Assembly (NCBI GenBank): GCA_963920575.1
Contig: OY986972.1
Span: 19,167,271 to 19,231,270, forward strand
From: Narthecium ossifragum
Taxonomy: Eukaryota > Streptophyta > Magnoliopsida > Dioscoreales > Nartheciaceae
DNA: 64,000 bases
Reading direction: 5' to 3'
The translations under genes were made by a program, and so were the position numbers. Within the stretch, counting starts at the first letter, position 1; every line of letters begins with the position of its first letter. The notes beneath the pieces are model-generated. The model saw only the letters and a program-made list of their open reading frames with translations. It ran no database searches and was not told the origin of the DNA. Below, in pieces: positions 1-43,673 of the stretch.

Positions 1-77
1 GTGTTGTCTTCCATTTCTCACCAATAGAAGGGCCAACTGTCCCCGAAGCAAATGCATATCCCCCTGACCGAAGCCGC

Positions 78-144
78 TTATTTCCCAGTGTTTGAAATTT
101 GTAACTGCTCCTCATACTTCAGGATAAATACGCCGCAGTCGAGG
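78..144 (-). other. Terminal exon with catalytic Cys of C48 protease
   Basis: After a 90-bp GT-AG intron (145-234) the frame continues as LDCGVFILKYEEQ, the canonical (S/L)DCG(V/I)F motif around the nucleophilic cysteine of Ulp1-type proteases. It ends at TAA (78-80 on plus). Joined to the preceding exon this gives a full H-D-C triad, although more N-terminal exons are broken. This exon is too short to stand out as an ORF and is recognised only through the motif and the splice sites. Confidence 0.6.
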
Positions 145-234
145 CTGTTGACAAAATTGAAAGTGTGAAAGGGTATTCAGTATAGTGTGCGTGGTGGAGT
201 GCACAAAAAGATTATGTACTGAAAGAAAGCTTAC

Positions 235-559
235 GATCCACGTTGACTGGGTATGGCTTGCTCCCGCACGTAAGACCACCCGGAGCCTTGCATCCCTCTA
301 GCATACAGCTTTGGTACCCAAGTCTGCAGTGCCCGCCCAACCCATTTTGTCATGTACTCCGCTTCTTCTTCGTAACTGCGAGCCCACGACGAGGTGTATT
401 GCCGACAAATCCCTTCTTTGAGGTCAACTGCAAGCAAGTGCCAGTGAAAGCCGGAGTGCAGTGGGATGAACCACACATCAACACTCGGCAGTGAAGAAAA
501 GGTATTGGCACCATGCAGGAGTGAGTCGCGAAGGGAATGACGGTCATGAACAATTGCGG
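235..559 (-). other. Exon with His and Asp of C48 protease
   Basis: Penultimate exon. It reads WFIPLHSGFHWHLLAVDLKEG, the conserved Ulp1/C48 strand with the catalytic His (GFHWH) and the Asp a few residues later (AVDL). The donor is at 234/235 (GATC|GTAAGC on minus) and a plausible acceptor is at 559/560 (CTGCAAG). The reading frame is open throughout. Upstream, a further intron at 560-639 has a good GTAAGT donor, and the next exon spans 640-814. Confidence 0.6.
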
Positions 560-639
560 CTTGCAGTAACAATAGTTAATCAGTAACAAGTGTGAAATAC
601 TTCAGTCTGTGACCCTCAAAACTATTCGAATCCACTTAC

Positions 640-814
640 ATGGAGGCGGGTGCTTGAGAAAAAACAGCGTCAACCCCCCTCTGCTTGAATCGGGCGGACA
701 GAAAAAATTCTTTGGATGGCGTCAATGAGGTCCCCTTCTATCTCCTGGTTGTTTATGACAGCCATCAATTGCCCCCTCGTACAGCATCCCATAGTATGGG
801 TGAATATTGTAACT
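640..814 (-). other. Internal exon of the C48 gene
   Basis: Minus-strand exon between a donor at 639 (CCAT|GTAAGT) and an acceptor at 815-817 (ATATGCAG). It encodes a stretch containing NNQEIEGDLIDAIQRIFSVRP. This is a plausible linker just before the protease core, but no motif is recognised. It is bounded on its upstream side by the repeat-filled intron 815-1110. Confidence 0.4.
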
Positions 815-1110
815 CTGCATATAAAATAATAAGAAAATACCTTAAACACGAGTAGAAATAAGATTAAACACGCGTATAGAGAACAAAAAACACGCGTATA
901 TATTACCTTAAACACGCGTAATAAATTAAAACATCGCATCTAAATAGAATTAAACACGCGTATGAATAAGCATAAAGACGCGTGTAAAAAACTCTAAACA
1001 CGCGTATCATAGTTTATAACAAATCTAAACTCAGTATAAACGCATATCAAATCACCGAATAAACACGCGTAGGATGAATCAAAAAATCGCGTATAATAAC
1101 ATTTAAGTAC
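815..1110 (-). repeat. Intron largely built of 22-bp ACGCGTA-core repeats (array A)
   Basis: Cores of the form ACGCGTA or close variants start at 848, 870, 892, 914, (934), 956, 978, 1000, 1040, 1065, 1087 and 1109. Most steps are exactly 22 bp and all copies have the same orientation. The spacer is A/T-rich (AAAC or TATAAA words). The array covers most of a 296-bp inferred intron. The last core overlaps the inferred 5' splice site (ATGC|GTAC on minus), and the acceptor is ATATGCAG at 815-820. Spacer sequence has drifted while the phase and the core are kept. Confidence 0.7.
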
Positions 1111-2609
1111 GCATGGAAAGAAAATCTAACTCGTCATCCAGCTGGTCGATGTAGCGCAGTTCATCCTTCTCCTCCTCGCTTAAGGTTTTAATGACGTCCT
1201 TCGAGTCTTGTAGGTAAGGTGTTTGATTGACAATGTGCCTGGAAATATTCCCACTTGCATGACCCAAGTTTGCCGCGGTCTGGTATTCCTTCTCGACCAA
1301 CTTTATCTTCTCCGCAAGGGCTCCAGGAGTGGCATGTAGCTCACTTATCTCGATCCAGCTGTCTTTTTCCTGGACCTCCACTTCCACAGTGGAGTCTTCA
1401 AACACATGCGCAGACTCCTAAGAAGGTGGAGACATCGAAGCATACTCGTCACCTTTAACGGCGGTCACGACCTCGTGGCGCGGAAAATACTTCACGCCCT
1501 CGCTCTGCACCACACCAGTAAGGTCTACTTCTACAACATAACTGTCGAGTGACCTCTCAACTGACACCTCCTCCATCGCTTCTCCAACGCCGCGGCCTTC
1601 AGTGTCATCCTTCCCCTCGATGACCTGACCAGTTGTATTAATGCCCGCGATTTCCACATGTTCAACTGTGGCATCCTCGGGACGGACACCACCCTCCTCG
1701 ATGACAGTCGCAGGGGCAACGCCGGTGTCTCGATCTGTGCGGACACCCCCCTCCTCGCTGACAGACGGAGGTACCTCGATGACATTCTCCTCGGGCATTG
1801 GATCCTTCGGCACGTCGATGACATTTGAAGGTGCCTCGCCAATGACTCCGTCTGTGCGGACACCATCCTCCTCGATGACCTCCTCTTCGGGCACTGGGTC
1901 CACCGGCGCACAGACGTCTTGCACCGTCGCTTTATCCCCGGCGCCTGTATCCACTGACTCTTCCTATCTAGCCCCCCCTTCGACGCCCGAATATGCATTG
2001 ATTGTGTCCATTATAACTCCCGACACAGCAGTGTACTCTTCTGTCACAACAATGTCCGGGTCACGAGTAGGAGTGTCGACCATGCTCCGCTTCTTTGGTG
2101 CTGCCTGCTTTTGCTTTGGCTTTTTCGACCTCAGACCATATGGACTACGAGCCCATGCTCTATTGACTCTGACTCCTTCCTTCGCAGTTTCAGCTTGCTC
2201 TTCAACAACTTCTTCAGCAACGGCCGTATCAGCCGTCTGAATGTCCGGCCGGATATCATCTTGCCCGAGATCACCCGGCCCGGCATCCCTCTTCATGATC
2301 ACATCCTCCTTTTCTTGACTCTGACTCCGAGGTGTTCTCCTTTTTCTTGCAACTGATCCTTCGAATGAGGGCGCCGCTTTCTCCTTCTCCAAAACATCCT
2401 CTCGGAAGGACACACTCCGCGGTGTCTTCATGATTGAAGGTGTCCGCGACTTCGCTTTGAGCCATTCAATTTCTTGTTCGGCTTCAGCGAGCCGCGCATT
2501 CGTTGCCCGCCAATTTCAATCTCAATTTATTGTTCTGGATGTTCATCGTCCTCACAGCATCGTCCTGGGCCACAATCCTCCGAGTCAATGTATCGACGTC
2601 CGATCTCAG
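1111..2609 (-). pseudogene. Central acidic/low-complexity exon of the C48 gene, with stops
   Basis: Minus-strand exon between the acceptor at 2610-2615 (CTCCAG|CTGAG) and the donor at 1110. It starts with a heptad-like segment (residues LRSDVDTLTRRIVAQ). It then has a basic stretch (RSKKPKQKQAAPKKR) and imperfect internal repeats of an EEGGVRTD-like unit, and it ends in another charged helix. The frame is broken by a one-base shift near 2480 and by TAG codons at 1964-1966 and 1418-1420. Long plus-strand frames here (for example 1641-2240) are antisense shadows of this biased sequence. Confidence 0.5.
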
Positions 2610-2988
2610 CTGGAGACAAGAGTGGGAAAAAAAAATGTTAAGTGCGCACGAAAAATACTTGTCAAAAGACACGAGTATAATAAGACACAAACACGCGTAT
2701 TACTAAAAGTAAAGACACGTATAATAGATCAAAAAGACGCGTATTTATACTAATAAACACGTGTATTATAGCTAATAAAGACGCGTATTAGTAATATTAA
2801 ACACAAGTATGATAGATCAAAACTACGCGTACTTATACTAATAAACACGAGTATGATAGCTCTAAAACACGCATATTTTGAGTAAAAAACACGAGTATAT
2901 TAGATTTTCATTCATAAAAACTTAACAGTTACCGAGTATCACACGTAATTAAATCTAACGACGAGTAATATCAATTCTAACGACGTAC
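2610..2988 (-). repeat. Intron largely built of 22-bp ACGCGTA-core repeats (array B)
   Basis: The most regular array. Cores (ACGCGTA, ACGAGTA, ACGTGTA, ACAAGTA, ACGCATA) start at 2671, 2693, 2717, 2737, 2759, 2781, 2803, 2825, 2847, 2869 and 2891. Eight successive steps are 22 bp or nearly so, and seven are exactly 22. Weaker copies lie near 2932 and good ones at 2961 and 2983. The core at 2983 forms the inferred 5' splice site (GAG|GTACGT on minus). Only about 60 bp at the acceptor side, including a pyrimidine-rich tract and CTCCAG, lies outside the array. Confidence 0.7.
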
Positions 2989-4107
2989 CTCAGCCAGCTT
3001 AGTCTCAATTCTTGGGCTGGCATGGGCATTCTCGGTCGACCGCGGCATGGTCATGAATTGAACACGCCTAGGGGGTGCGTCTTCACGAGAGGACAGTGCA
3101 TCAGAAGTCCCAGCCACCGTTGTATGTCTTCGTGATTGCTCGGCTTGCGTGGAATGCCTCAGATACAAGGTACATTCCACATCGATGTAGACAAGCTGGA
3201 AATTATAGAAAACCAACAGTTGGTTAGTAGACATTCCAAACTAGACGGCCATAAAGAAATCCGAACAGTATTTTAGCTCGACATTACCCGTGTAGTCGTT
3301 CCTTGTGTAACAGTGTCGGTGAGGTTCTTTCTCCTCACCAGCTGTACATGACCCCACCTCATCATGCGTGGGATACTGTTCGCGAAGGTTGGTGCCCTGC
3401 AACCGGTAATCTCATAATATCATATGAGCAGAACATCAGTGCACCCGCAGACATAAGTACATGCCCTTGATGGCGCCCTCCACTGTCTGTGAGCCATGGC
3501 GACCTCCGTCTTAAGGTGCTCGTGAACTGCGGTTGCCCAGTCAATATTCTGCAGTGAGTAGAGATCTTCCAAAAGGGGCACCAGGTATGAAGGGGCGGTG
3601 TAGTTGGACCTCGGGAACAAGAAGACGGTGAACATGTAGAGAATAAAGAAGTGGCAGAAATCTGCAATGTCCTCCACTTCACTCTTGCCCTTGAGATCAT
3701 CCAAGATCCCATCGATATGACTAGACTGCAGGTCTAGCTCCTTGGTATGTCTACTGTAGAATGATATACTCCTGAGCTGCTACCGCATCTTCTTCCGCTT
3801 CGGCCGAGAACCGCCCATAGGTAGACCGAGGATAACTGCTATGTCTTCTGCTTTTAGCTCGATGTTGCTACCTTGGACAGTGAACCGTAAACCTCCATTG
3901 TAATTCCTCATCATGTGGTCCAAGAGGACACTGTCAGGTCTTATCTTTGACAAGTCGAGCATATGGACGAAAGGTGTCTCGCAAATTTTGGTTGCATGGG
4001 CCGACGTCATATATTCGCGGCGGCCTCCTATATCTTATGCGCGAAGCACCGGCTTGAGAACGGAGTGCGGCCGACCTCCAGTAAATTGTCGTCACCACTG
4101 CTTGTCT
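2989..4107 (-). pseudogene. Plant-mobile-domain-like exons of the C48 gene
   Basis: Minus-strand pieces. 3780-4010 reads through a segment with FVHMLDLSKIRPDSVLLDHM and IELKAEDIAVILGLPMGG, typical of the N-terminal domain found with plant Ulp1-like transposon genes. 3420-3704 continues with FILYMFTVFLFPRSNY and YLVPLLEDLYSLQNIDWATA, the next conserved block. 2989-3234 is a less conserved exon ending at the GAG|GTACGT donor. Small introns lie near 3713-3779 and 3235-3360. The acceptor near 4108 (CCGCAG) is plausible, but the frame that follows meets a stop, so the N-terminus is damaged. Confidence 0.5.
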
Positions 4108-4154
4108 CTGCGGTTCACACGAGATAAGAGTTGGAGTTAAATAGCGCAAATAAA

Positions 4155-4660
4155 CAGCTTAACAACGGGTAGACGCAACAAAAAGTACGCATATAAACAA
4201 CATTAAGAACACGTATAAACACCAATGCATAGAATACACCATATCAACGCATAGAAACAACCAAAAGTACGCGTATAAACAAGTAAATGTGCCAATCTAC
4301 ACAACGAAGTTGAATAGCGCATATAAAACCCATTAAATACGCGTAAAAACTACAAATAGTACGCGTATAAATGAGTAAATGTGCCAACCTACAATAGCGC
4401 GTATAAAAGAGTAAATAGCGCGTATAAAACACCTTAACAACGCGTATATAAAACAATAAGTACGCATATAAAAGAGACAAAGTACGCGTAAAAACTAGTA
4501 AATAGCGCGTATAAAAGACCTTTACAACGCGTAGAAACAACCATAAGTACATGTAAAAACAACCATAAGTACGCGTGTAAACAAGAGCGCATAGAAAACA
4601 CCAAAAAGACACTTAGAAAGAACAAAAAGTACGCGTGTGAATGCTACATTTCTTAGCGCA
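4155..4660 (-). repeat. 22-bp ACGCGTA-core repeat array in first intron (array C)
   Basis: Cores (ACGCGTA, GCGCGTA, ACGCATA, ACATGTA) start at 4165, 4187, 4209, 4247, 4269, 4317, 4339, 4361, 4397, 4418, 4440, 4462, 4484, 4505, 4527, 4549, 4571, 4587, 4609 and 4631, with most steps 21-22 bp. The array fills most of the inferred intron 4108-4804 but begins about 150 bp from its donor (CCG|GTAAGC at 4804). The minus-strand frames here with repeated FYTRYL-like words are only translations of this repeat. Confidence 0.7.
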
Positions 4661-4804
4661 AAAAATTATGTAGGATACGGGGACGAAAATAATGGTATTT
4701 ATTTTTTCCACAATAGATGAGAGGAGAACACACCGCCTTGTGCCAAAAAAAAAAATTAAAAAATTAAAATTAAAAGGATTAAGTCGGGATGAATAAGGGC
4801 TTAC

Positions 4805-4919
4805 CGGAGTCCATGTCCGAAGATCCAGCGCCGGCATCCACCTCCGCCTCTTTTTTCGTCCACTTTGGTCCCTCGGCTTTTCTCGCTTTCCCCTTGGATT
4901 TGGTGGATTTTGCCTCCAT
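4805..4919 (-). other. Probable first exon of the C48 gene
   Basis: The ATG at 4917-4919 (minus) opens a short lysine-rich exon (MEAKSTKSKGKARKAEGPKW), a common type of N-terminus for plant-mobile-domain transposon proteins. It ends at a good donor, GACTCCG|GTAAGC, at 4804. The exon is 115 bp, leaving one base for the next codon. The start is inferred from the motif and the splice site, not from transcript data. Confidence 0.4.
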
Positions 4920-6260
4920 CGATGGAAATGGAATGGGTGGAACTCGGAAAAAGGTCTAGGGTATGAGAAACCCCTTTTGTCGCGATGGAAATCGAACGCA
5001 ATCTCTCGATCTCTCGATCTCTCGATCTCTCGGTGAAGATTGGAAGGGTAAGTAGAAGATTTGAAAAGCCGCATTCAAATCCCATTTTTATGTGTATTTA
5101 TCCGACGCGTCATTTCATCTTCGCGTCGCCTGCAACCGCCGTATAACTGGCTAATAGCGTCTTGCCACGTGTGGGGTGATGAACGCGACAGAGACTTGAT
5201 TTCTGGGAAGTTATTATTATAACATACATGCCATGCCACGTCATGTGGCAGGGCATGGCATGTATGTGGTGTCATATGGGCATGGGTTAAGTGAGGGGTA
5301 AGATGGGGTTTTCCATGTCCAGGGGGTATTAAATTGCAAAAAAACAAGGCAAATGTATTAAACCGGAAAAAGTGAACTTTGGGGGTACTAAAATGCAAAA
5401 ACTTCTGCATTAGCGGGTGGTTTGTGTGGAATGATAGTCTGGGTCTAGCTGTTCGTGATGTATGTAGGCAGGTTGCTCCGTTTTCCTGGGTTTCGTTTCA
5501 TTCCGTTCTATTCCGCGGGAGCAGGTGTCCGTCCTTAGCGGACACTAACTCGTTTTGTTCGGGGTTAGGGTTAAGGGGGTTAAGTGGAATATGGGGCTAG
5601 AAAAAGTGAAGGTAAGAAAAAATAGAGAGGAATGTGATAGGTGGAATAGTAGTAACCCCGTAATCATTGTTTTGATATTTGGTGAAAAAATAGGGATAAA
5701 ATGAGGGTAGCCCCCTTAACCCTGTTGCCAGACAAGGGCGTCGAAGTTGGTTACGAGGTTGGCTAGGGAGGGGCGTTGGACACAATCCTGGGTGTTTGAT
5801 TCTGGTCATTTGGTGGGGTTCCTCCGGTTGGGTTTCTTCTTCTTCTTCTTTTTTCGTTGCAGTGTGATTGTGTTTTTTTTTTCAGATAATTGGTGTTTAG
5901 GTCCATAGTAAGGAAATATTTATCCAAAACTCCATATACATTTTCCTTAAGGTGTTTAATACCTTGTTGTTTAGCTGTATTTTTTTAATGTCTAAAATAC
6001 CCTCCTATGACTCTTGGGCTTCTTGTAGAGAGACTTTAATCACATATGTGTGATGGACCCGCAAGCATACACAAGCTCAATTGCATTTATGAATCCCTCT
6101 AACTACTTCTCTCCTCTCCACTCCAATCCCTGTACACATCTCATTCTCTCTCTCTCACTACTTCTCTCCTCAATTGCATTTAATGCGTACACATCTCTTT
6201 CTCTCTCTCACTATTTCTCTCCTCAATTGCATTTAATGTCTGCGGCCATCATCTCACCTT
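4920..6260. other. Non-coding stretch with simple repeats
   Basis: No convincing gene. It contains a short (CTCGATCT)n run at about 5000-5035, a 16-bp inverted repeat at 5222-5267, A/T-rich filler, and a roughly 60-bp imperfect tandem duplication at about 6120-6240 built of CTCTCTCACTA and CTCAATTGCATTTAATG words, ending at the assembly gap. Confidence 0.5.
5222..5267. repeat. Perfect 16-bp inverted repeat (hairpin)
   Basis: ACATACATGCCATGCC (5222-5237) is followed after 14 bases by its exact reverse complement (5252-5267). A second short stem, CCAC/GTGG, lies at the base of the loop. It could be the core of a foldback or MITE-like element. No target duplication was found. Confidence 0.6.
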
Positions 6261-10576: not shown

Positions 10577-10990
10577 TCGGATCGATCCCTCTCCCAAGGG
10601 AGGATCGATCCCTCTAATGACAGAGAACGAACTCTCCATACTGCGCCGAGTCCGATCGATCCGTCCTCCCAGGATGATCGATTCGACTCGGGACGGATCG
10701 ATCCCACTCACAACGAGGGGATCCCATGCTATCCAAGGAGACCGATCGATCCAGCCAAGAGAGCGATCGATCCAGCCAAGGAGACCGATCGATTCAGCCA
10801 AGGGAACGATCGATCCAACCAAGAGACCGATCGATCCATCTCCGAGTCCGATCGATCCATCCCAAGAGACCGATCGATCCGTCCCAAGAGACCGATCGAT
10901 CCGTCCCAAGAGACCGATCGATCCTTCTCAACGATCCACGTTCCTGTCATTGAGCGATCGATCCTTCTAGTAAGGAAGGATCGATCCCTC
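10577..10990. repeat. Array of GATCGATC palindromes (outer LTR)
   Basis: About 16 copies. Nine consecutive cores start at 10743, 10764, 10786, 10807, 10828, 10849, 10871, 10893 and 10915, with steps of 21-22 bp and spacers related to CCAAGAGAC. Other copies lie at about 10577, 10601, 10651, 10675, 10694, 10952 and 10977. The long frames here with repeated DRSI and IDPS words are translations of the repeat and are not listed as genes. Confidence 0.75.
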
Positions 10991-11203
10991 TTTCGCAGGA
11001 AGCTGGACTTGGGTTAAAACTTAAACCCAAGTCCGGATCTTTCGATCCCGGGTCCCACTAACCATTCTAGCCAAACATTACCATAAACATGGTCAGTGTT
11101 TGCACACGCGAGTGTGAAACAAGCCGACAAGGCGCAATTTACCAAATTGCCCTTGCGGTCCATGACGAGCCACAGGAGTAGAGGGACGGGTCCTCACAGC
11201 CGG

Positions 11204-13402: not shown

Positions 13403-14535
13403 TGTTGATCCTAACCCTGTTTTGATGATGCCAATATACATTAAATGATAAAATATATGGTTAACATTTATTACCCCTTTAATTGGAAATCTTAAATTCA
13501 ATATTTAAGTTAATTTTGTACTGACGATCGATGCAAGGATCGACCGTGGGAATGTGACGGTCGATCCATGGATCGACCGTGTTGAATGCAAATATGCGTT
13601 ATTGGCTCACGGTCGATCGGTGCATCGACCGTGGGAAGCGTTTTTCTTCACAGAGCCTCTCGGTCGACCGTGGCGCATTAATAAAGAAAGTGAAGAAACG
13701 ACGGTCGATCGGTGCATCAACCCTGGGAAGCATAAAACTTCACAGAGCCTGACGGACGATGCGACGGTCGATGCGGCGGTCGACCGTGGCGCATGTATGA
13801 AGAAAAATCAAGTAGCGACGGTCGATCCGAGCATCGACCCTGGGAAGCGACTTTCTCAACAGAGGCTCACGAACGATGTGATGGTCGATGTCACGGTTGA
13901 CCGTGAGAGTGACGGACGATGCGTGGATCGACCGTCGATCAAAAAGGTTGAGTTTTTATACGTGACGGACGATGCATGGATCGACCGCCAACAACGCGCA
14001 GAGTAAAAAACTAGCCGTTGAGAGTTGCAGAGAGCCGTTGGAGCTCCTTGTTGAGCTGGTTGAAGCCCATGTATAAGTAGTTCCTTCATGTAAACTTACA
14101 AGAACTTTTATCATTATTATTGAGATCATCTGAGCAAGTGTTAGAGAAGTTTTCTACTTATTCTTTTTTGTGTTACAACCTTTGTAAGCCTTCTTCAAGT
14201 GTGAAGAGGTATCTTGAGAGATAGTCAACAGCAAGTGACTGTGAGTGTAAGGTCACCAAACACCAGAAAGCTTGGAGGAAAAGCTTGTAAGAGATTTGCA
14301 AGTAGTGGAACCTCAAGGGAAGTCTTGAGAGAAGTGGACGTAGACCAAGAGTTGGGTCGAACCACTATAAAATCGGTGCAATCTCTCTAACCCTCTTAAT
14401 TATATTCTTGTATGCCTCTTTTCTTTAGTTTCATCTCATCTTCAAGCATTTAAAGTGTTAATTCTCTCCAACCTGGTTTTTTCATTAAACTAGATTTTCG
14501 AAAAGAGTCCAATTCACCCCCTTCTTGGACCTTCA
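13403..14535 (+). mobile_element. 5' LTR of a Sirevirus-like Ty1/copia element
   Basis: Starts TGTTGATCCTAACCC after the target sequence GCACA (13398-13402) and ends CCTTCA, two bases before a primer-binding site. It is about 1.13 kb. The upstream third is dominated by long palindromes of GGTCGATC/GATCGACC type. A possible TATA element (GTATAAGTAG) lies near 14070. No 3' LTR partner was found, so the right boundary rests on the primer-binding site alone. Confidence 0.65.
13526..13985. repeat. Long GGTCGATC...GATCGACC palindromes in the copia LTR
   Basis: Repeated units place GGTCGATC and its complement GATCGACC a few bases apart. 13557-13580 is a perfect 24-bp palindrome centred on CCATGG. 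Imperfect relatives recur at about 13607-13632, 13700-13730, 13760-13790, 13816-13842, 13880-13935 and 13967-13985, often separated by GGGAAGC. Sireviruses are known to carry conserved palindromic repeats in their LTRs. The motif here has its own sequence but would play the same structural part. Confidence 0.65.
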
Positions 14536-14537
14536 AT

Positions 14538-14552
14538 TGGTATCAGAGCTAG
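14538..14552 (+). promoter_or_regulatory. Primer-binding site, copia element
   Basis: TGGTATCAGAGCTAGG two bases after the LTR end matches the 3' end of plant initiator-Met tRNA, the usual primer for this group. It fixes the right end of the 5' LTR. Confidence 0.85.
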
Positions 14553-14599
14553 GTCTCTATTTCAGTGGTTTAACAACCCTTAGAGGATTCTATTTAGAG

Positions 14600-16348
14600 A
14601 TGGAAAACATAGAGGGACAAGCTACCAATAGGCCACCCTACTTTAATGGTTTAAACTATAATTACTGGAAAACAAAAATGGAAATTTTTGTTCAATCAAT
14701 GGACTATGAGGCATGGTTAGTAATAGAGGATGGACCTTATGTCCCTACTAAAATTGTTGATGGGAAAGATGTCCTAAAGACAAAGAGTGACTACACCCCA
14801 ATTGACCACAAGAACCTTCAAACTAATGCCAAGGCCAAAAGCTTTCTATTTTGTGCCCTTAGCCCTAGTGAATTCAATAGGGTCTCGACATGCAAATCAG
14901 CAAAAGAGATATGGAACAAACTTGAGGTTACATACGAGGGAACAAGTCGTGTTAAAGAGTCAAAAATCAGTATACTTGTACATGACTATGAAACTCTTTT
15001 GCATGAAGAATGATGAAACTATTAGTGAGATGTTTATACGTTTTACTAACATATTAAATATGCTTGAATCTCTTAGAAGAATTTATGCTAATGATGAGAT
15101 TGTGAGGAAGATTCTTAGGTGTCTACCTAAGTCGTGGGATCTTAAAGTGACAGCGATCGAAGAAGCCAAGGATCTATCCAAATTATCACTAGATGAGCTC
15201 ATGGGTTCCCTCACGACCTATGAGATGAACTTGAAGAGAAGCAACGAAGAAGGAGATAAAAAGAAGAAGATGGTTGCCTTCAAGTCGTCTAACAAAGACT
15301 CATCCGATTCAAGTGAAGGAGATGACGATGAGGAGTTGGCGATGATATCAAGAAGAATACAAAAGATCTTCAAACACCAAGGAGGAAAGAAATTCTTCAA
15401 GAAATAGTTCTTCAAAGGTGAAAAGTATAATCCTACCTCTTCTAACATAAATGAAATCATATGTTATGAGTGTAGAAAACCCGGACACTACAAGTTCGAT
15501 TGTCCTCAACTCAAGAAGCCAACAAAGAAGGAGTTCAAGAAAAAGAAGGCAATGATGGCTACTTGGGGAGAAAGTGATGTGGAGACTTCATCCGATGAAG
15601 AAGAATAAGAGGTAGCCAACATATGCCTAATGGCACATGGATATGAGGAAGAAGAAGAAAATGAGGTAGAGGATGAGCTTGCATTTGAAGAACTTTTTTA
15701 TGCTTATCATGCTTTAGCTAATGATTTCAAAGTCCTTACAAAAAATACTATGCTACTTATAAGGACTTGAAGAAAGTAGAAGAAGAAAAAGTAGATGGCA
15801 TACATAGGATTGGAATTCTGGAAAAAGAAAACAAAGGTATGCTAGATAACAAGTCTTGTGACACAAATGACACACTTGAGGATGAACTCAAGGACACTCA
15901 ATATGAGCTCACCATATTGAAGAACACAAACTATGATATGCAAAGGAAACTCATCTTCTTGATGAAATCCAAGAGAGATCTCACTCTTGAGGTGAATGAC
16001 TTAAAAATCACTATAGCAAAATTCGTGAAGAGTAGAGATAAGTTAGATGAGATTCTTGATAGCCAAAGGAACTCCTTAAACAAGAAAGGAATTGGCTACA
16101 ACTCTAGGAAGGTGAACAACCAAAAGAATACTAACTTTGTTAAAGTTTCTTCTCATCCTCCTAAGGTAACACAAGCACCTATATGTCATTATTGTTGCAA
16201 AGTAGGTCACATTGCACCTAGTTGCTATCTAATGAGGAATGCTAATGCTAAGAAAATTTGGGCACCTAGACATTCATCTTCTTCTCTTATGCATAGTACT
16301 AATGCAAATGGGCTCAAAAAGATTTGGGTACCAAAAATCAAGGTTTGA
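14600..16348 (+). pseudogene. Copia (Sirevirus-like) gag, frameshifted
   Basis: The ATG at 14600 opens a UBN2-type gag (RPPYFNGLNYNYWKTKMEIF). One base too many near 15003 shifts the frame, which continues with MKNDETISEMFIRFTNILNM. Further stops lie at 15405-15407 and near 15606. It has two CX2CX4HX4C zinc knuckles, at 15462-15503 (CYECRKPGHYKFDC) and 16184-16225, separated by a long predicted coiled coil (15767-16080). Two knuckles with a long coiled-coil gag fit the Sirevirus/Maximus lineage. The protein would coat the element's RNA in virus-like particles, but this copy cannot make it intact. Confidence 0.75.
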
Positions 16349-21987: not shown

Positions 21988-22374
21988 TTGACATATATGT
22001 CAGTCAATATATCCTATTTTACATGTATCCCGCTGTATTTTTCATATAGGCCACTAAATTGATGAGATGCTTTCATATAAGCTCCTCAAACAATGAGAAG
22101 GTAAAAAGGTAACAACATGCGGGGAATTCAACAAAATACACTTGGTTAGTACGCAGAAGATGTGAGGTTATTTAAGTAAAATTTCTTTCACATCTTATTC
22201 TCTCTCTCTTGATTAGATGAGTGCAAAGGCTTAGATAGATAGGGAACAACTAACTCACACAAGTCACTCATTTCAACCAAAAAAAACACAATCCCACTAC
22301 AACGAAAAAAAACACAATCACACTACAACGAAAAAAAAAGGGACAAGGGTCAATAGGGACTAAACAAAAATAGG
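21988..22374. other. A/T-rich spacer, no gene seen
   Basis: Contains a (CT)n run at 22200 and the directly repeated phrase AACGAAAAAAAACACAATC near 22290-22330. No coding potential. Confidence 0.4.
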
Positions 22375-23621
22375 CTACGGTAGTAGGGCATCATTTGTTT
22401 TCCATTTGCCAATATACTCCTTCATATATTGGATAGGATATGCCTTCGCTTCCTTCAACACTCCGTTGAAACTCTCGACCATGTTCGTTGATAACATTTT
22501 GCATCTTCCACCTGGGAAGCAGTGGGTTGCCCATTTTTCTTTCGGAATTTCCATAACGTACTGGTACTGCTTCGGATACAACTCCTTCATGGTGTCCATG
22601 GCCCGTTTGAAACGAACCTCAGTGTGCGCTCTCGCAGCCGCCCAGAACAGGTTGTATGGCGCTGATCTCCTTCCTGCATTCACCAGATTACGCGACAAGT
22701 GCACCATGCAAAACCCATGGTTTGCTTCCGGGAACACATCCTCCACGGCCTTCAGTATCCCTTTGTGCCGGTCGGATATTATAGTCAACTTCGCAAACGG
22801 ACTAATACATGTGCGGAGGCGTGAGAGAAACCATGTCCACGACTCCGCCGTCTCTTTGTCCGCAACTCCAAAAGCCACAGGAATTATATGATTATTGCCA
22901 TCTACCCCAATTGCAGTAAAAATTATCCCCGGATACTTGCCAGTGACAAATGTGCCATCTATACCAAGAATTGGCCGCATGTAATTTTTGTAGGCATGGA
23001 TGCATGCGCCGAAGGCCCAGTATATGCGTAGGAAACGGTTCTCGCAATCTAACTGAAGTGCCGTCACTGTGGTCGGGTCTCTCATCATCAACTCCCGCAT
23101 GTAGGGTCTCAACAAAGTGTAGGAACGCTCGAATGTTCCACGGACCTGTTTGCATGAGAAACATAATTACAGGAAAATTCATGCGCAACCCAAAATGAAG
23201 AATAACATAGGTTCCGCTCTCACCTGGGAGAGAACTCTCTGCTTGGCACAGTACGCCTTCCAGTATGACACCTTCGCGCCGTATCTTTTCAAAATCTCGA
23301 TTACAATCATCTTCACAGTGTATTTCTCATTTGATGCGACCTGCTCTTTTACCTCTTCAGCGATAAAAGAGCATGTCAGTTGCTTGTGGCAACGACTGAT
23401 AATTGGCTTGTTACATGTGTGGTCATTGACAAATTTCCTTATCCGAAAAGTGGGAATACCGGGCACCTTCCTAGCAATCACCTTCCAATGACAGTTTGTT
23501 TCCACACAAAGCACTAGAACCTTCCGTTCAGTATATTTTTTCGTGATATACTCGAAACGGCGCGTGATTGCGTATCGTGCGAGTGCAAGTCTTAGTTTTT
23601 TCTTATCCGGAAAGGACTGAT
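22375..23621 (-). pseudogene. MuDR-like (MULE) transposase, 5'-truncated
   Basis: Two minus-strand exons, 23224-23621 and 22375-23145, joined by a 78-bp intron with CCCAG|GTGAG donor and GCAAACAG acceptor. Exon 1 has the MuDR DNA-binding-type segment (SFPDKKKLRLALARYAITR) and a zinc-binding-like part (CVETNCHWKVIARK). Exon 2 holds the catalytic domain: ILGIDGTFVTGKYPG with the first Asp, TIISDRHKGILKAVEDVFP with the second, then FCMVHLSRNL. The coding region ends at TAG (22375-22377), and no SWIM finger follows. The 5' end is cut at 23621 by LTR sequence, so the N-terminus is missing. The remaining exons are open, suggesting moderate age. Confidence 0.8.
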
Positions 23622-24472
23622 TGTGAGGAACCGTACCTCCAACCTGATCCGACCGCGTTAGGTCGAGGGTCTGGGTTTGTGGTTTGGCTCGGTTGGCCTT
23701 GGGATGCGATCGGTTGATCGCATCGCTGTTTTTGACCCCAGTGGAATTTTGATAAATATGCTCCCTGGTGGTCAGTTTCACACCCGCGTTGCACACATGG
23801 CCTTTGATTGATGTATGTGTTTGATTAGAACCTTTAGAGGGCTTCCGATCGGAAGATCGGAGCTTGATCGGGAGAGATCGAACCGGACGGCTGCGATGGG
23901 TTCCAGTTTTCTATTTAAGCCCTCCTTCTCTCTCTCTTTCTTTCTTTCTTCTTCTCCTGCGTTCTTTCTTCTCTCTCTCACCTGCGGCTGGGTGCTAGGG
24001 CATCGGAGTGCGGACTTCGAGGAGCGCTTTCCGGCGATCGGAGTTGGAGGATGCGTGGAGGAGCTGCCCTGCTTCATCAAGTAGGTGTTTCTACCTCGAT
24101 CTTAGGATCGGGTTCTCCTAGGATAGGTTTATTGTATTTTTGCTGTAGGAGTACTTATTAGAATGTTGTGTAACTTGTAGCATGTATGTTGTGGATGATT
24201 TCAAGTATTCCTACCTCGCGATTTCCGTATTTTATCGGTTGAATCTCGTATTATCGCCGTTTATTGGTTTTCGGCCGTTTTGACCTAAATTGGAGATTTA
24301 ACCGTCAAACATATGATTTCTTTGCACCATTGGTTTCCCCATCGTTAATTACACATGTTTGCAAAGTTTCATCGAATTCCAACTTGATTTGATCCTTGAA
24401 ATCCAAGGAATTGGATTTCCGGCACTGTTCTGATGAACTGTGCCTAAGGCTCGACGGTCGATCGGTGCATCC
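23622..24472 (+). mobile_element. Truncated gypsy LTR, plus orientation
   Basis: Starts TGTGAGGAACCGTACCTCCA, matching the first roughly 100 bp of the 2.6-kb LTR at 58700 (TGTGAGGACCCGTACCTCCA). A TATA-like CTATTTAAGC lies at about 23911, followed by a CT-rich leader. It lies in the MuDR gene and is cut at about 24472 (CGATCGGTGCAT), where it joins an oppositely oriented LTR fragment. The 5-bp left flank CTGAT (23617-23621) is not repeated after 25492. Confidence 0.6.
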
Positions 24473-25492
24473 ACTGCCCTATTATAGGGCTAACATGCTT
24501 AAACATATGTACCAGGTATAAGGCGGTAAAGAAAACCGTCATACAAAGCCATGCGGGCAAAACCCACTTGAAAACACCCCTTAGCCACTAAGAGATCGAT
24601 CTCTCTCCCAGAGAAGATCGATCTTCTTAGTGCTTGGGAATGAATTCGTCCATGTCAAGCGAAAGAGATCGATCTCTTCCTCCAGAAGGATCGATCTTCT
24701 TCATGACAGGGAACCCTCCATACTCAACCCAGCACGGATCGATCTCTTCCTCCAGAAGGGTTGGGCATGACACTCCATAAGAGATCGATCTCTCCTCAAA
24801 AGAGATCGATCCGAATGGGTTCTCCGGCGACCGGACGGCGAGAAATACCGCCGAAAAACGCTACCAAACCCCCTAAAACTCTGGGATCTGGTAGATCAAG
24901 GGACCACGAGTCCAAAATCAGTGGAATCACAGCAAACAAACATGTATACTAACAGATCTAAGCAAAAGATCACAATCAAACCAGAAAAACTTCCAAAAAC
25001 CCGAAAAGATGTAGGTAGGATCCCTACCTTAGCAATAGCAGCTTCAATCCTAGCTGCTAGGCCTTGGATCTTCCTCAAACTCTTTCAAAATCGGTAGATT
25101 TGTGCTCCAGATCCATGGATTTCAAAAAGATTCAAGGAAATTCGCCGAGTCCGCTTTATAGGCGGACGAACCGACCTATGAGGGATCGATCTCTTCTCAA
25201 AAGAGATCGATCTCTCATGACGAACTCAGCTTGACTTTTTGGCACAAGAAGATCGATCTCTTAGCTAGAGAAGATCGATCCGATTTGTCCAGAAAGCTAG
25301 TCTTGGGCAAGAATTTAAGCCCAAGTCCGGATTTTTCGAACCCGGGTCCCACTAACCATTCTAGCCAAACATTACCACAAACATGGTCAGTGTGTGCACA
25401 CGCGAGTGTGAAACAAGCCGACAAGGCGCAATTTACCAAATTGCCCTTGCGGTCCACAACGAGCCACAGGAGTAGAGGGACGGGTCCTCACA
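24473..25492 (-). mobile_element. Truncated gypsy LTR, minus orientation
   Basis: Begins CCACTGCCCTATTATAGGGC, identical to 10457 in the outer solo LTR, and ends GGGTCCTCACA at 25492, so it is the 5' part of a minus-oriented LTR of that family. It carries GATCGATC palindromes in the variant AGATCGATCT. Its left end is a junction, not a terminus. Confidence 0.65.
24590..25282. repeat. AGATCGATCT palindrome copies
   Basis: Copies near 24593, 24616, 24667, 24690, 24737, 24782, 24803, 25189, 25204, 25250 and 25271, often in close pairs 15-24 bp apart. The flanks are extended palindromes (GAGATCGATCTC; GAAGATCGATCTTC). Compared with GGATCGATCC in the other LTRs, both outer bases changed together. 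Confidence 0.65.
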
Positions 25493-42190: not shown

Positions 42191-42508
42191 AATATGGGTT
42201 TGGGTCAGCATGAGGTCGTAGCATTTTAATGGGTTATGAACTTTGTTTGGTTTGGATTTATGATTTGTTTATTTAACTTTAGGTGCAAGGGTTATTTGGT
42301 CATTTGGTTTGTTTAGGGTTTTGAAGGTTGTTATATATTTATAACTCTGTAGCCGAAAGGGGGATGATGGATGGAGTCTTATAAAAGAATGTTCCTGAGA
42401 GAGTTTTCTCTTTTCCCTATATTCCTAGATCTGTGTAACCTAGGTCTATAGAAGAGTTGAGCTATTGTGTTTGCAGATTCTGCTTCCTATCCATACCGCG
42501 CTGCATCA
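42133..42508 (+). mobile_element. 3' LTR of the CRM-like gypsy element
   Basis: 376 bp, ending CTGCATCA, followed by the target duplication ATTTG. It encodes the C-terminus of pol (to 42190). A TATA element at about 42378 points towards the kinase half of the receptor gene, so a chimeric LTR-initiated transcript is possible, though no such transcript is shown here. Confidence 0.95.
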
Positions 42509-42513
42509 ATTTG

Positions 42514-43673
42514 GCTTTTCGGGTTCCACGGGAGGCGGGACGGAGAACCACAGGATCCTCTCCTGGGTCTTCAATTCAACTCTGGAGGGTAAACCAACTC
42601 CACTAGAGTTTGGAAAGAAGAGCAGCAATCTTGGGCTGGTCGTCGGACTAGTCACCACCGGTGTAGTGGTCTTGGTTGTGATCTCAGCCTTGTTACTTTT
42701 CGTCCGATGGAGGAGAAAGCGAGGAATCAGAGAATCTGATCATGAGGCCATTGATTTCGACTTTGAGAAGGGAAGAGGACCGAGGAGTTTTCGTTACAGG
42801 CAACTCGCCAGCGCTACCAACAACTTTGCAGAAGAAAGGAAGCTTGGCCAGGGAGGTTTTGGATCAGTGTACAGAGGTTTCTTGAGTGATTTGAATCTTG
42901 AGGTGGCCATCAAAAGAATCTCAAGGGAATCTAAACAAGGGAAGAAGGAGTACATCTCCGAGGTGACGGCCATCAGCCGGCTTCGGCACCGGAGTCTACT
43001 TCAGCTCGTCGGCTGGTGCCATGAACGCCAGGAATTCATGCTAGTGTATGAGCTCATGCCAAACGGAAGCCTCGACAGGCATCTCTACAACCCGGCAAGC
43101 TCACTCCCTTGGCCAGTGCGATACAAGATCGCCATCGACCTCGCCAGTGCACTGTTCTATCTACATGAGGAGGGTGACCAATGTGTGTTGCATAGAGACA
43201 TCAAGCCGAGCAATGTGATGCTAGACTCTAAATTCAATGCCAAACTCGGGGATTTCGGCCTGGCAAGGCTCATTGATCGCGACCAGGAATCGCAAACGAC
43301 TACCCTCGCTGGAACTCTGCCATACTTGGCACCGGAATGCTTCGCCACCAGAAAGGCGAGCAAAGAGTCTGATGTCTATAACTATGGCATTGTTGCACTT
43401 GAGATTGCATGTGGGAGGCGGCCTGTGGATACTTTGGCGGAGGAGAGCCAGGTAAGGCTGGTGAACTGGGTTTGGGAGCTCTATGGACGAAAAGAGCTAA
43501 TGGAAGCTGCTGATGTGAGGTTGGACATGGATTTCCATGAAGAGCAGATGGAAAGGTTGATGGTGGTCGGCTTAGCGTGTGCCCACCCGGATTGCGGACA
43601 CCGGCCAAGGATGAAACAAGTGATCAACATGCTAAACTTCGAAGCACCATTGCCGGAGATTCCATCGGAGGTG
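42514..43673 (+). pseudogene. L-type lectin receptor kinase, piece 2 (end of lectin, TM, kinase)
   Basis: Continues exactly at the base after the duplication: GFSGSTGG finishes the lectin domain, then a stalk, a transmembrane helix (VVGLVTTGVVVLVVISALLL, about residues 290-313 of the ancestral chain) and a complete Ser/Thr kinase. Motifs: glycine loop GQGGFGSV (about 361-368), VAIK lysine (about 383), HRDIKPSN (about 476), DFG (about 496) and APE (about 523). All catalytic residues are kept. The RD-type kinase and sequence fit the plant LecRK family. The open frame extends upstream into the 3' LTR from 42465 but has no ATG there. It ends at GTG (43671-43673), where the next retrotransposon supplies TGA. 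No stop or frameshift within the piece. Confidence 0.9.
43669..43673 (+). repeat. Target-site duplication, second element (left)
   Basis: AGGTG at 43669-43673 equals AGGTG at 48040-48044, a perfect 5-bp duplication around the element 43674-48039. Confidence 0.95.

What the first reader, a model, noticed from the sequence alone, without database searches (positions are those of the whole stretch)
815..4660. Three introns of one gene filled by the same 22-bp-phased ACGCGTA repeat
Inferred introns 815-1110 and 2610-2988, and most of 4108-4804, consist of same-orientation repeats with an ACGCGTA-type core. In array B the cores at 2737, 2759, 2781, 2803, 2825, 2847, 2869 and 2891 are each 22 bp apart. 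Array A has runs of exact 22 bp (848-914, 956-1000, 1065-1109), and array C is mostly 21-22. The spacers have diverged while the phase and the self-complementary CpG core remain. In A and B the array runs to the 5' splice site, and the first core is or overlaps the donor (GTACGT in B). I know of no described intron class built this way. One reading is introns grown by tandem copying of donor-side sequence; another is a selected helical phase (two turns of DNA) or a target-size preference.
Basis: partly seen in the sequence, partly recalled or inferred. Interest (0 to 1): 0.88.

Follow-up and report, generated by a model that had tools for sequence, protein, structure and literature searches.

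The report
Motif arrays filling transposon-gene introns
Three predicted introns of a broken, probably transposon-derived plant gene are packed with one short DNA motif repeated in the same direction mostly every 22 bases, and these arrays likely served as docking sites for a protein that would shield the transposon from the plant's DNA silencing, much as known arrays do in Arabidopsis.

Summary
All 16 exact ACGCGTA sites on the + strand of the 64-kb window lie in the three named stretches. These are the three long predicted introns (697, 379, 296 bp) of a minus-strand gene; its three short predicted introns (80-92 bp) hold none. Spacing is mostly 22 bp, and in two introns the array runs in phase into the 5' splice site. 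The gene encodes a weak plant-mobile-domain (PMD) match and a Ulp1/C48 protease domain, and is decayed: four in-frame stops plus frame breaks.

Arabidopsis VANDAL transposons carry dense same-orientation motif arrays in introns and other noncoding DNA; their own protein VANC binds them and removes DNA methylation (PMC5735166, Results read). Some VANC genes carry Ulp1 (PMC13317346, passages).

Best explanation: a VANC-like self-recognition array in a PMD-Ulp1 transposon gene. Binding and demethylation are inferred. No DUF1985 (a VANC domain) was found, so I do not file it as VANC. Main rival: neutral minisatellite growth. The window's own genome could not be searched.

The parts
815..1110 (-). 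Predicted intron 4 (296 bp) with array A, 10 cores with up to one mismatch at 848-1093; array in phase with the donor at 1110
2610..2988 (-). Predicted intron 3 (379 bp) with array B, 12 cores with up to one mismatch at 2671-2967, 44/88-bp higher-order copies; array in phase with the donor at 2988
4108..4804 (-). Predicted intron 1 (697 bp) with array C, 16 cores with up to one mismatch at 4165-4637, 87-bp higher-order copies; 4638-4804 next to the donor is not array
4805..4919 (-). Predicted exon 1, from ATG
3288..4107 (-). Predicted exon 2, weak plant-mobile-domain match (E=1.3e-5, under the curated cut-off); in-frame stops at 3780-3782 and 3420-3422
2989..3195 (-). Predicted exon 3
1111..2609 (-). 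Predicted exon 4, acidic variable region with a coding tandem repeat at about 1683-1907; in-frame stops at 1964-1966 and 1418-1420, frame break near 2510
640..814 (-). Predicted exon 5, frame breaks inside
235..559 (-). Predicted exon 6, Ulp1/C48 protease match, with the HW and VD motifs
1..144 (-). Predicted exon 7, C48 DCG motif; cut by the window edge, frame break inside
3196..3287 (-). Predicted short intron 2 (92 bp), no core
560..639 (-). Predicted short intron 5 (80 bp), no core
145..234 (-). Predicted short intron 6 (90 bp), no core

Best explanation
The three long predicted introns of this decayed PMD-Ulp1 gene hold same-direction arrays of an AAAnACGnGTA-type motif that likely worked as a recognition array for a DNA-binding protein made by the same transposon family, which would have countered DNA methylation of the element. 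Shown by sequence: the arrays, their orientation, their restriction to the long introns within the part of the gene that the window holds, motif retention over spacers (clear in array B), array-specific amplification (22, 44, 87/88 bp), in-phase joining to two splice donors, the Ulp1 domain and the decayed state. Inferred: that the gene is transposon-borne (probably Mutator-like), that a family member's protein, probably the PMD-Ulp1 protein itself, binds the motif, and that binding lowers methylation as VANC does on VANDAL arrays. On this model introns suit such arrays because they lie inside the element, are spliced out of the mRNA and tolerate T-rich tandem growth as long as the donor and the last stretch before the acceptor (33, 61 and 57 bp are core-free here) are spared.
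For: Dense arrays of one motif in one orientation, only in the three long introns (16 of 16 exact sites; 0 in three short introns). In array B, with all in-phase units kept, the 88-bp copies differ at 5 of 49 core and 33 of 105 spacer positions (p=0.005), and the core window ranks 1, 1 and 2 of 22 phases at lags 88, 44 and 22. Different arrays share the core (78-85%) but hardly the spacers (35-36%, background 30-32%). CpG observed/expected is 3.0, 2.4 and 1.8 in the introns against 0.74 in the window. Ulp1/C48 E=5.3e-12, PMD E=1.3e-5. A coding tandem repeat in exon 4, as variable regions of VANC proteins have. Precedent: VANC21 binds same-orientation motif arrays in tandem repeats in introns of VANC21 and VANB21 and in other noncoding DNA and causes methylation loss (PMC5735166, Results); some VANC genes carry Ulp1 (PMC13317346, passages); PMDs are listed for many plant MULE groups (PMC6446971, passages), and an anti-silencing use of MULE-captured PMD proteins was already speculated (PMC5418596, passages).
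Against: No DUF1985 match and no VANC21 or VANC6 motif in the introns. The PMD match is under the curated cut-off. No element end or transposase could be tied to the gene; the nearest transposase found is a MULE 17 kb away, and PMD and Ulp1 also occur in other elements and PMD in host genes. No array in the 1.3 kb upstream, only scattered single sites, whereas VANC21 targets also include intergenic and terminal regions. Core retention is not significant for the 87-bp copies of C (5/35 vs 18/66, p=0.21), and in A and C units were chosen by motif, which favours the core. A second array of similar phase with another core lies elsewhere in the window. No relative was found.
Confidence: 0.45

Rival explanations
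1. Neutral minisatellite growth: a short stretch, at the donor side in at least two of the long introns, was copied head to tail by slippage or unequal exchange; the introns share the motif by common origin or by copying between introns, and it has no function.
For: Tandem copies at 22, 44, 87 and 88 bp; arrays run in phase to the donor in A and B; two donors share a 10-mer and an 11-mer with arrays; the gene is dead; core retention is clear only in B.
Against: In B cores decay less than spacers of the same age although they hold CpG sites; arrays in different introns share the core but hardly the spacers; array C stops 167 bp short of its donor.
Confidence: 0.3
2. Array bound by another transposon protein, such as a transposase or accessory factor (as CACTA subterminal repeats are, recalled), for transposition rather than anti-silencing.
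For: Ulp1 domains also occur in CACTA elements of grapevine and in rice proteins with Tnp2 (PMC2528002, passages); dense directional motif arrays are typical protein-binding layouts.
Against: The arrays are internal, in introns, and none was seen in the 1.3 kb upstream; the other element end is outside the window, so this is not excluded.
Confidence: 0.12
3. RNA-level role: the repeats act in the pre-mRNA through T-rich, self-pairing units that help splicing or shorten the intron by folding.
For: The sense strand is 44-47% T in the array introns against 35-39% in the short ones; A (z -2.4) and B (z -3.8) fold better than shuffles.
Against: C folds no better than shuffles (z +0.46; 15 of 20 shuffles fold at least as well); the self-pairing core is broken in 9 of 13 listed units of B; the short introns of the same gene have none of this.
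Confidence: 0.06

Closest known systems
VANC-target arrays of VANDAL21 and VANDAL6, Mutator-like elements of Arabidopsis (Hosaka et al. 2017, PMC5735166, Results read)
   Same: Short motif at high density in one orientation, in tandem repeats, within introns of the transposon's own genes; VANC proteins have variable regions with tandem peptide motifs.
   Different: Motif differs (YAGTATTAY; AGTTGTCC/AGTTGTAC); VANC has DUF1985 and DUF287, not found here; VANC arrays also lie in intergenic and terminal regions; binding and demethylation are shown there, not here.
[quoted passage not shown]
   Same: Ulp1 domain in a fast-evolving transposon gene; said there to recognise motifs in noncoding parts of their own elements.
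   Different: PMD-like N-terminal part here instead of a VANC domain; element type not settled.
PMD genes carried by plant MULEs (PMC5418596 and PMC6446971, passages)
   Same: PMD-type protein in a plant transposon setting; an anti-silencing use was speculated.
   Different: No motif arrays in introns are described in the passages I saw; the PMD match here is under the curated cut-off.
Intron gain by tandem duplication (listing only: PMC2891723; general idea recalled)
   Same: Donor-side sequence is part of a tandem repeat in A and B.
   Different: Acceptor sides are not repeated; the copies are 22-bp units inside introns, not an exon stretch carrying both splice sites.

Membership tests
VANC/VANDAL anti-silencing system | dense same-orientation short-motif arrays in introns of the element's own genes | tested here: met
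VANC/VANDAL anti-silencing system | motifs amplified as array-specific tandem repeats | tested here: met
   TRF periods 22, 44, 87, 88; spacers differ between arrays
VANC/VANDAL anti-silencing system | DUF1985 (and DUF287) in the protein | tested here: not met
   no match up to E=10 among two read-through pieces; weak matches can be lost by HMMER's filters
VANC/VANDAL anti-silencing system | the described VANC21 or VANC6 motif | tested here: not met
   0 in the three introns; 1 and 2 in the whole window. Motifs are family-specific, so this only rules out those two families
VANC/VANDAL anti-silencing system | protein variable region with tandem peptide motifs | tested here: met
   coding repeat at about 1683-1907 in exon 4
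VANC/VANDAL anti-silencing system | element with a Mutator-type transposase | tested here: inconclusive
   gene cut by the window edge; a MULE transposase 17 kb upstream is not tied to it
VANC/VANDAL anti-silencing system | encoded protein binds the motif and lowers methylation | not testable with these tools
   needs EMSA/ChIP and methylation data
Ulp1-bearing transposon genes (KIU-like) | C48 Ulp1 domain | tested here: met
   Pfam E=5.3e-12, 46.5 bits against a cut-off of 20.7; SENP1 alignment with HW, VD, DCG
PMD proteins | PF10536 above its curated cut-off | tested here: not met
   24.9 bits against 34.9, E=1.3e-5; PMD-like only
Neutral minisatellite | core and spacer decay alike between copies of one age | tested here: inconclusive
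   B lag 88: 5/49 vs 33/105, p=0.005 (not alike); C lag 87: 5/35 vs 18/66, p=0.21
Dispersed satellite of the genome | same array outside this gene | tested here: inconclusive
   no exact core elsewhere in the 64-kb window; the rest of the genome could not be searched

The most novel reading that the evidence does not exclude
A self-targeting anti-silencing system built on a plant-mobile-domain/Ulp1 protein instead of DUF1985-VANC: a transposon that keeps its recognition sites in the long introns of the very gene that makes the recognising protein, at a spacing of about two DNA turns and with a CpG-bearing motif that could read methylation directly.
Probability: 0.25. Interest if true: 0.8.

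Novelty: new variant of a known kind. Interest (0 to 1): 0.55.

Why it matters
If right, sequence-specific anti-silencing by transposons is not confined to DUF1985-VANC genes. The plant mobile domain, shared with the host silencing proteins MAIN and MAIL1 and listed for many plant MULE groups, would gain a testable role: a DNA reader paired with a motif visible in its own gene's introns. Protein and target could then be matched family by family from sequence alone.

Tried and rejected
Prokaryote and virus collections: a three-core pattern hit one viral contig (L001) that has a GC-rich repeat of another kind, taken as chance. A 119-aa PMD piece found no relative in viral contigs (11 pattern matches, none confirmed) or genome contigs (70, none confirmed). 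Protein search with the read-through protein: none at E<=0.001 among the 7,994 candidates scored and, for residues 85-300, none at E<=1 among 5,265. Organism: for the kinase at 42444-43673, 120 of 6,276 matches were listed and every listed row whose name gives an organism is a flowering plant; near full-length matches reach 62-63% in Musa and 63-64% in Tetracentron and Magnolia, and the three grasses that I noted among the listed rows have 43-58%. So the lineage stays open. RNA structure as the cause: C folds no better than shuffles. tRNA and Rfam scans of the window: no match. An intron first suspected at 3460-3397 was dropped, because the PMD frame reads through it with one stop. The column-permutation test for a contiguous core in B was not significant (p=0.09); the AAA left of the core is conserved too. 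Bacterial promoter/terminator scan upstream: at chance level, of little meaning in a plant. Of the two-mismatch sites printed, six were added to the unit list; the others, overlapping or off phase, were left out.

Papers: Results of PMC5735166 read; abstract and passages of PMC10398659; passages of PMC5418596, PMC13317346, PMC6446971, PMC2528002; PMC9016345 not held. No description of this array turned up in the ten listings, which cover open-licence PMC papers only.
Full report
What is there. The 64-kb window has 16 exact ACGCGTA sites on the + strand and all 16 are in the three named stretches, 1,372 bp in all. Sites with up to one mismatch number 10, 12 and 16 in arrays A (815-1110), B (2610-2988) and C (4108-4804), against shuffle means of 2.0, 1.8 and 3.4; 21 more are scattered over the rest of the window, 2 of them in the exons of this gene. 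Tandem Repeats Finder reports period 22 in all three, with 44 and 88 bp in B and 87 bp in C. Of successive spacings, 6 of 9, 8 of 11 and 8 of 15 are exactly 22.

The gene. All three lie in one minus-strand gene with predicted exons 4919-4805, 4107-3288, 3195-2989, 2609-1111, 814-640, 559-235 and 144-1, cut by the window edge. The array introns have GT-AG borders, and the frame carried over each junction stays open for 25, 41 and 15 residues before a frame break. The three other predicted introns, of 92, 80 and 90 bp, hold no core with up to one mismatch. So within one gene the three long introns are array-filled and the three short ones are not. Exon 2 gives a weak plant-mobile-domain match (E=1.3e-5, 24.9 bits, under the curated 34.9) and exons 6-7 a Ulp1/C48 match (E=5.3e-12, 46.5 bits, over its cut-off of 20.7); the C48 part aligns with SENP1, including HW, VD and DCG. 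The copy is dead: in-frame stops at 3782-3780, 3422-3420, 1966-1964 and 1420-1418 and several frame breaks. I take it as transposon-derived because PMD and Ulp1 genes are known cargo of plant MULEs (PMC6446971, PMC13317346, passages). This is inference: PMD also occurs in host genes and Gypsy elements (PMC5418596, passages), Ulp1 also in CACTA elements (PMC2528002, passages), no relative was found, and no element end or transposase was tied to the gene.

What is conserved. In array B, where all 11 units in strict phase can be kept without choosing them by motif, the 88-bp copies show 5 mismatches in 49 core positions and 33 in 105 spacer positions (p=0.005). Over the 22 possible phases the core window ranks first at lags 44 and 88 and second at lag 22; the columns without any mismatch at all three lags are one A of the left AAA and the A, C, T and A of ACGnGTA. 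The central base varies, so the palindrome is not the conserved thing in B. Exact ACGCGTA is in 4 of 13 listed units there, 6 of 10 in A and 6 of 21 in C (44 units in all, six of them added at two mismatches). In A and C the comparison is less clean because units were picked by motif: A lag 22, 8/46 vs 88/159; A lag 44, 10/33 vs 79/138; C lag 22, 35/112 vs 132/296; C lag 87, 5/35 vs 18/66, not significant. A permutation test for contiguity of the conserved columns in B was not significant (p=0.09). Between arrays the spacers match at 35-36%, near the background of 30-32%, and the cores at 78-85%, again with units picked by core. CpG observed/expected is 3.0, 2.4 and 1.8 in the array introns A, B and C against 0.74 in the window. 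Of 34 changes in the 44 cores, 14 are G to A at the two CpG sites and 3 are C to T. That looks like CpG decay read mostly from one strand; I have no explanation for the bias.

Donor overlap. In A the last core (1087) is followed at exactly +22 by ACGCATG, which covers the 5' splice site of intron 4. In B the last core (2961) is followed at +22 by a stretch that runs into the GTAC of the intron 3 donor. The intron 4 donor shares an 11-mer with array C and the intron 3 donor a 10-mer with array B; the other four donors share no more than 6. Random donor-like 17-mers share 11 or more in 123 and 10 or more in 500 of 20,000. By total matches over 17 bases the donors are not outstanding. The acceptor-side 33, 61 and 57 bp of A, B and C are free of cores. 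Array C stops 167 bp short of its donor. This fits arrays that fill whatever intron space splicing leaves free, in two introns from or into the donor.

How it most likely works. VANDAL transposons are a worked case of the same anatomy: VANC21 binds YAGTATTAY motifs that lie in one orientation at high density, in tandem repeats, in introns of the element's own genes and in other noncoding DNA, and causes methylation loss there; VANC6 does so with other motifs; VANC variable regions often carry tandem peptide motifs (PMC5735166, Results), as exon 4 does here. Some VANC genes carry Ulp1 (PMC13317346). The authors of PMC5418596 already speculated that MULE-captured PMD proteins serve anti-silencing. 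I therefore think the arrays are a recognition array for a protein of this transposon family, probably its PMD-Ulp1 protein. Binding, demethylation and membership in a MULE are inference. By the tests made it is not a VANC: no DUF1985 and no VANC21 or VANC6 motif in the introns. It may work like one.

Against it. No relative was found in two protein searches or two contig scans; the own genome was never reachable; the 1.3 kb upstream holds only scattered one-mismatch sites and no array; and a second, unrelated array with CGATCG cores at 21-22 bp steps (10743-10915) shows that such phasing is not special to this gene. Neutral growth of a donor-side minisatellite remains a serious rival (0.3). 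RNA-level roles are unlikely, since folding exceeds shuffles in A and B but not in C.

Verdict. Observation confirmed; interpretation partly supported; likely a new variant of a known kind. The most direct next step is to find intact copies and ask whether protein and motif change together.

Noticed in passing
10743-10915 (also about 8.4-8.6, 9.7 and 10.6-11.0 kb; related block 25251-25492): A second, different array: nine CGATCG cores spaced 21, 22, 21, 21, 21, 22, 22, 22 bp, among scattered GGATCGATCC-type palindromes; 10956-11198 is 88% like 25251-25492.
   Followed up: partly
13520-13990: Repeated CGGTCGATC / GATCGACCG stretches just 5' of a copia-type gag at 14489-15404.
   Followed up: no
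22378-23910, minus strand: MULE transposase: DBD_Tnp_Mut and MULE domains in two frames. A 36-bp T-rich stretch beside it (22305-22340) matches 5845-5880, upstream of the array gene, at 94%.
   Followed up: partly
cores of arrays A, B, C: Changes at the core CpG sites are lopsided: 14 G to A against 3 C to T on the + strand, that is, mostly C to T on the gene's sense strand. Unexplained.
   Followed up: no
5222-5267: A 46-bp self-complementary stretch (83%) about 300 bp upstream of the gene's ATG; possibly a small inverted-repeat element.
   Followed up: no
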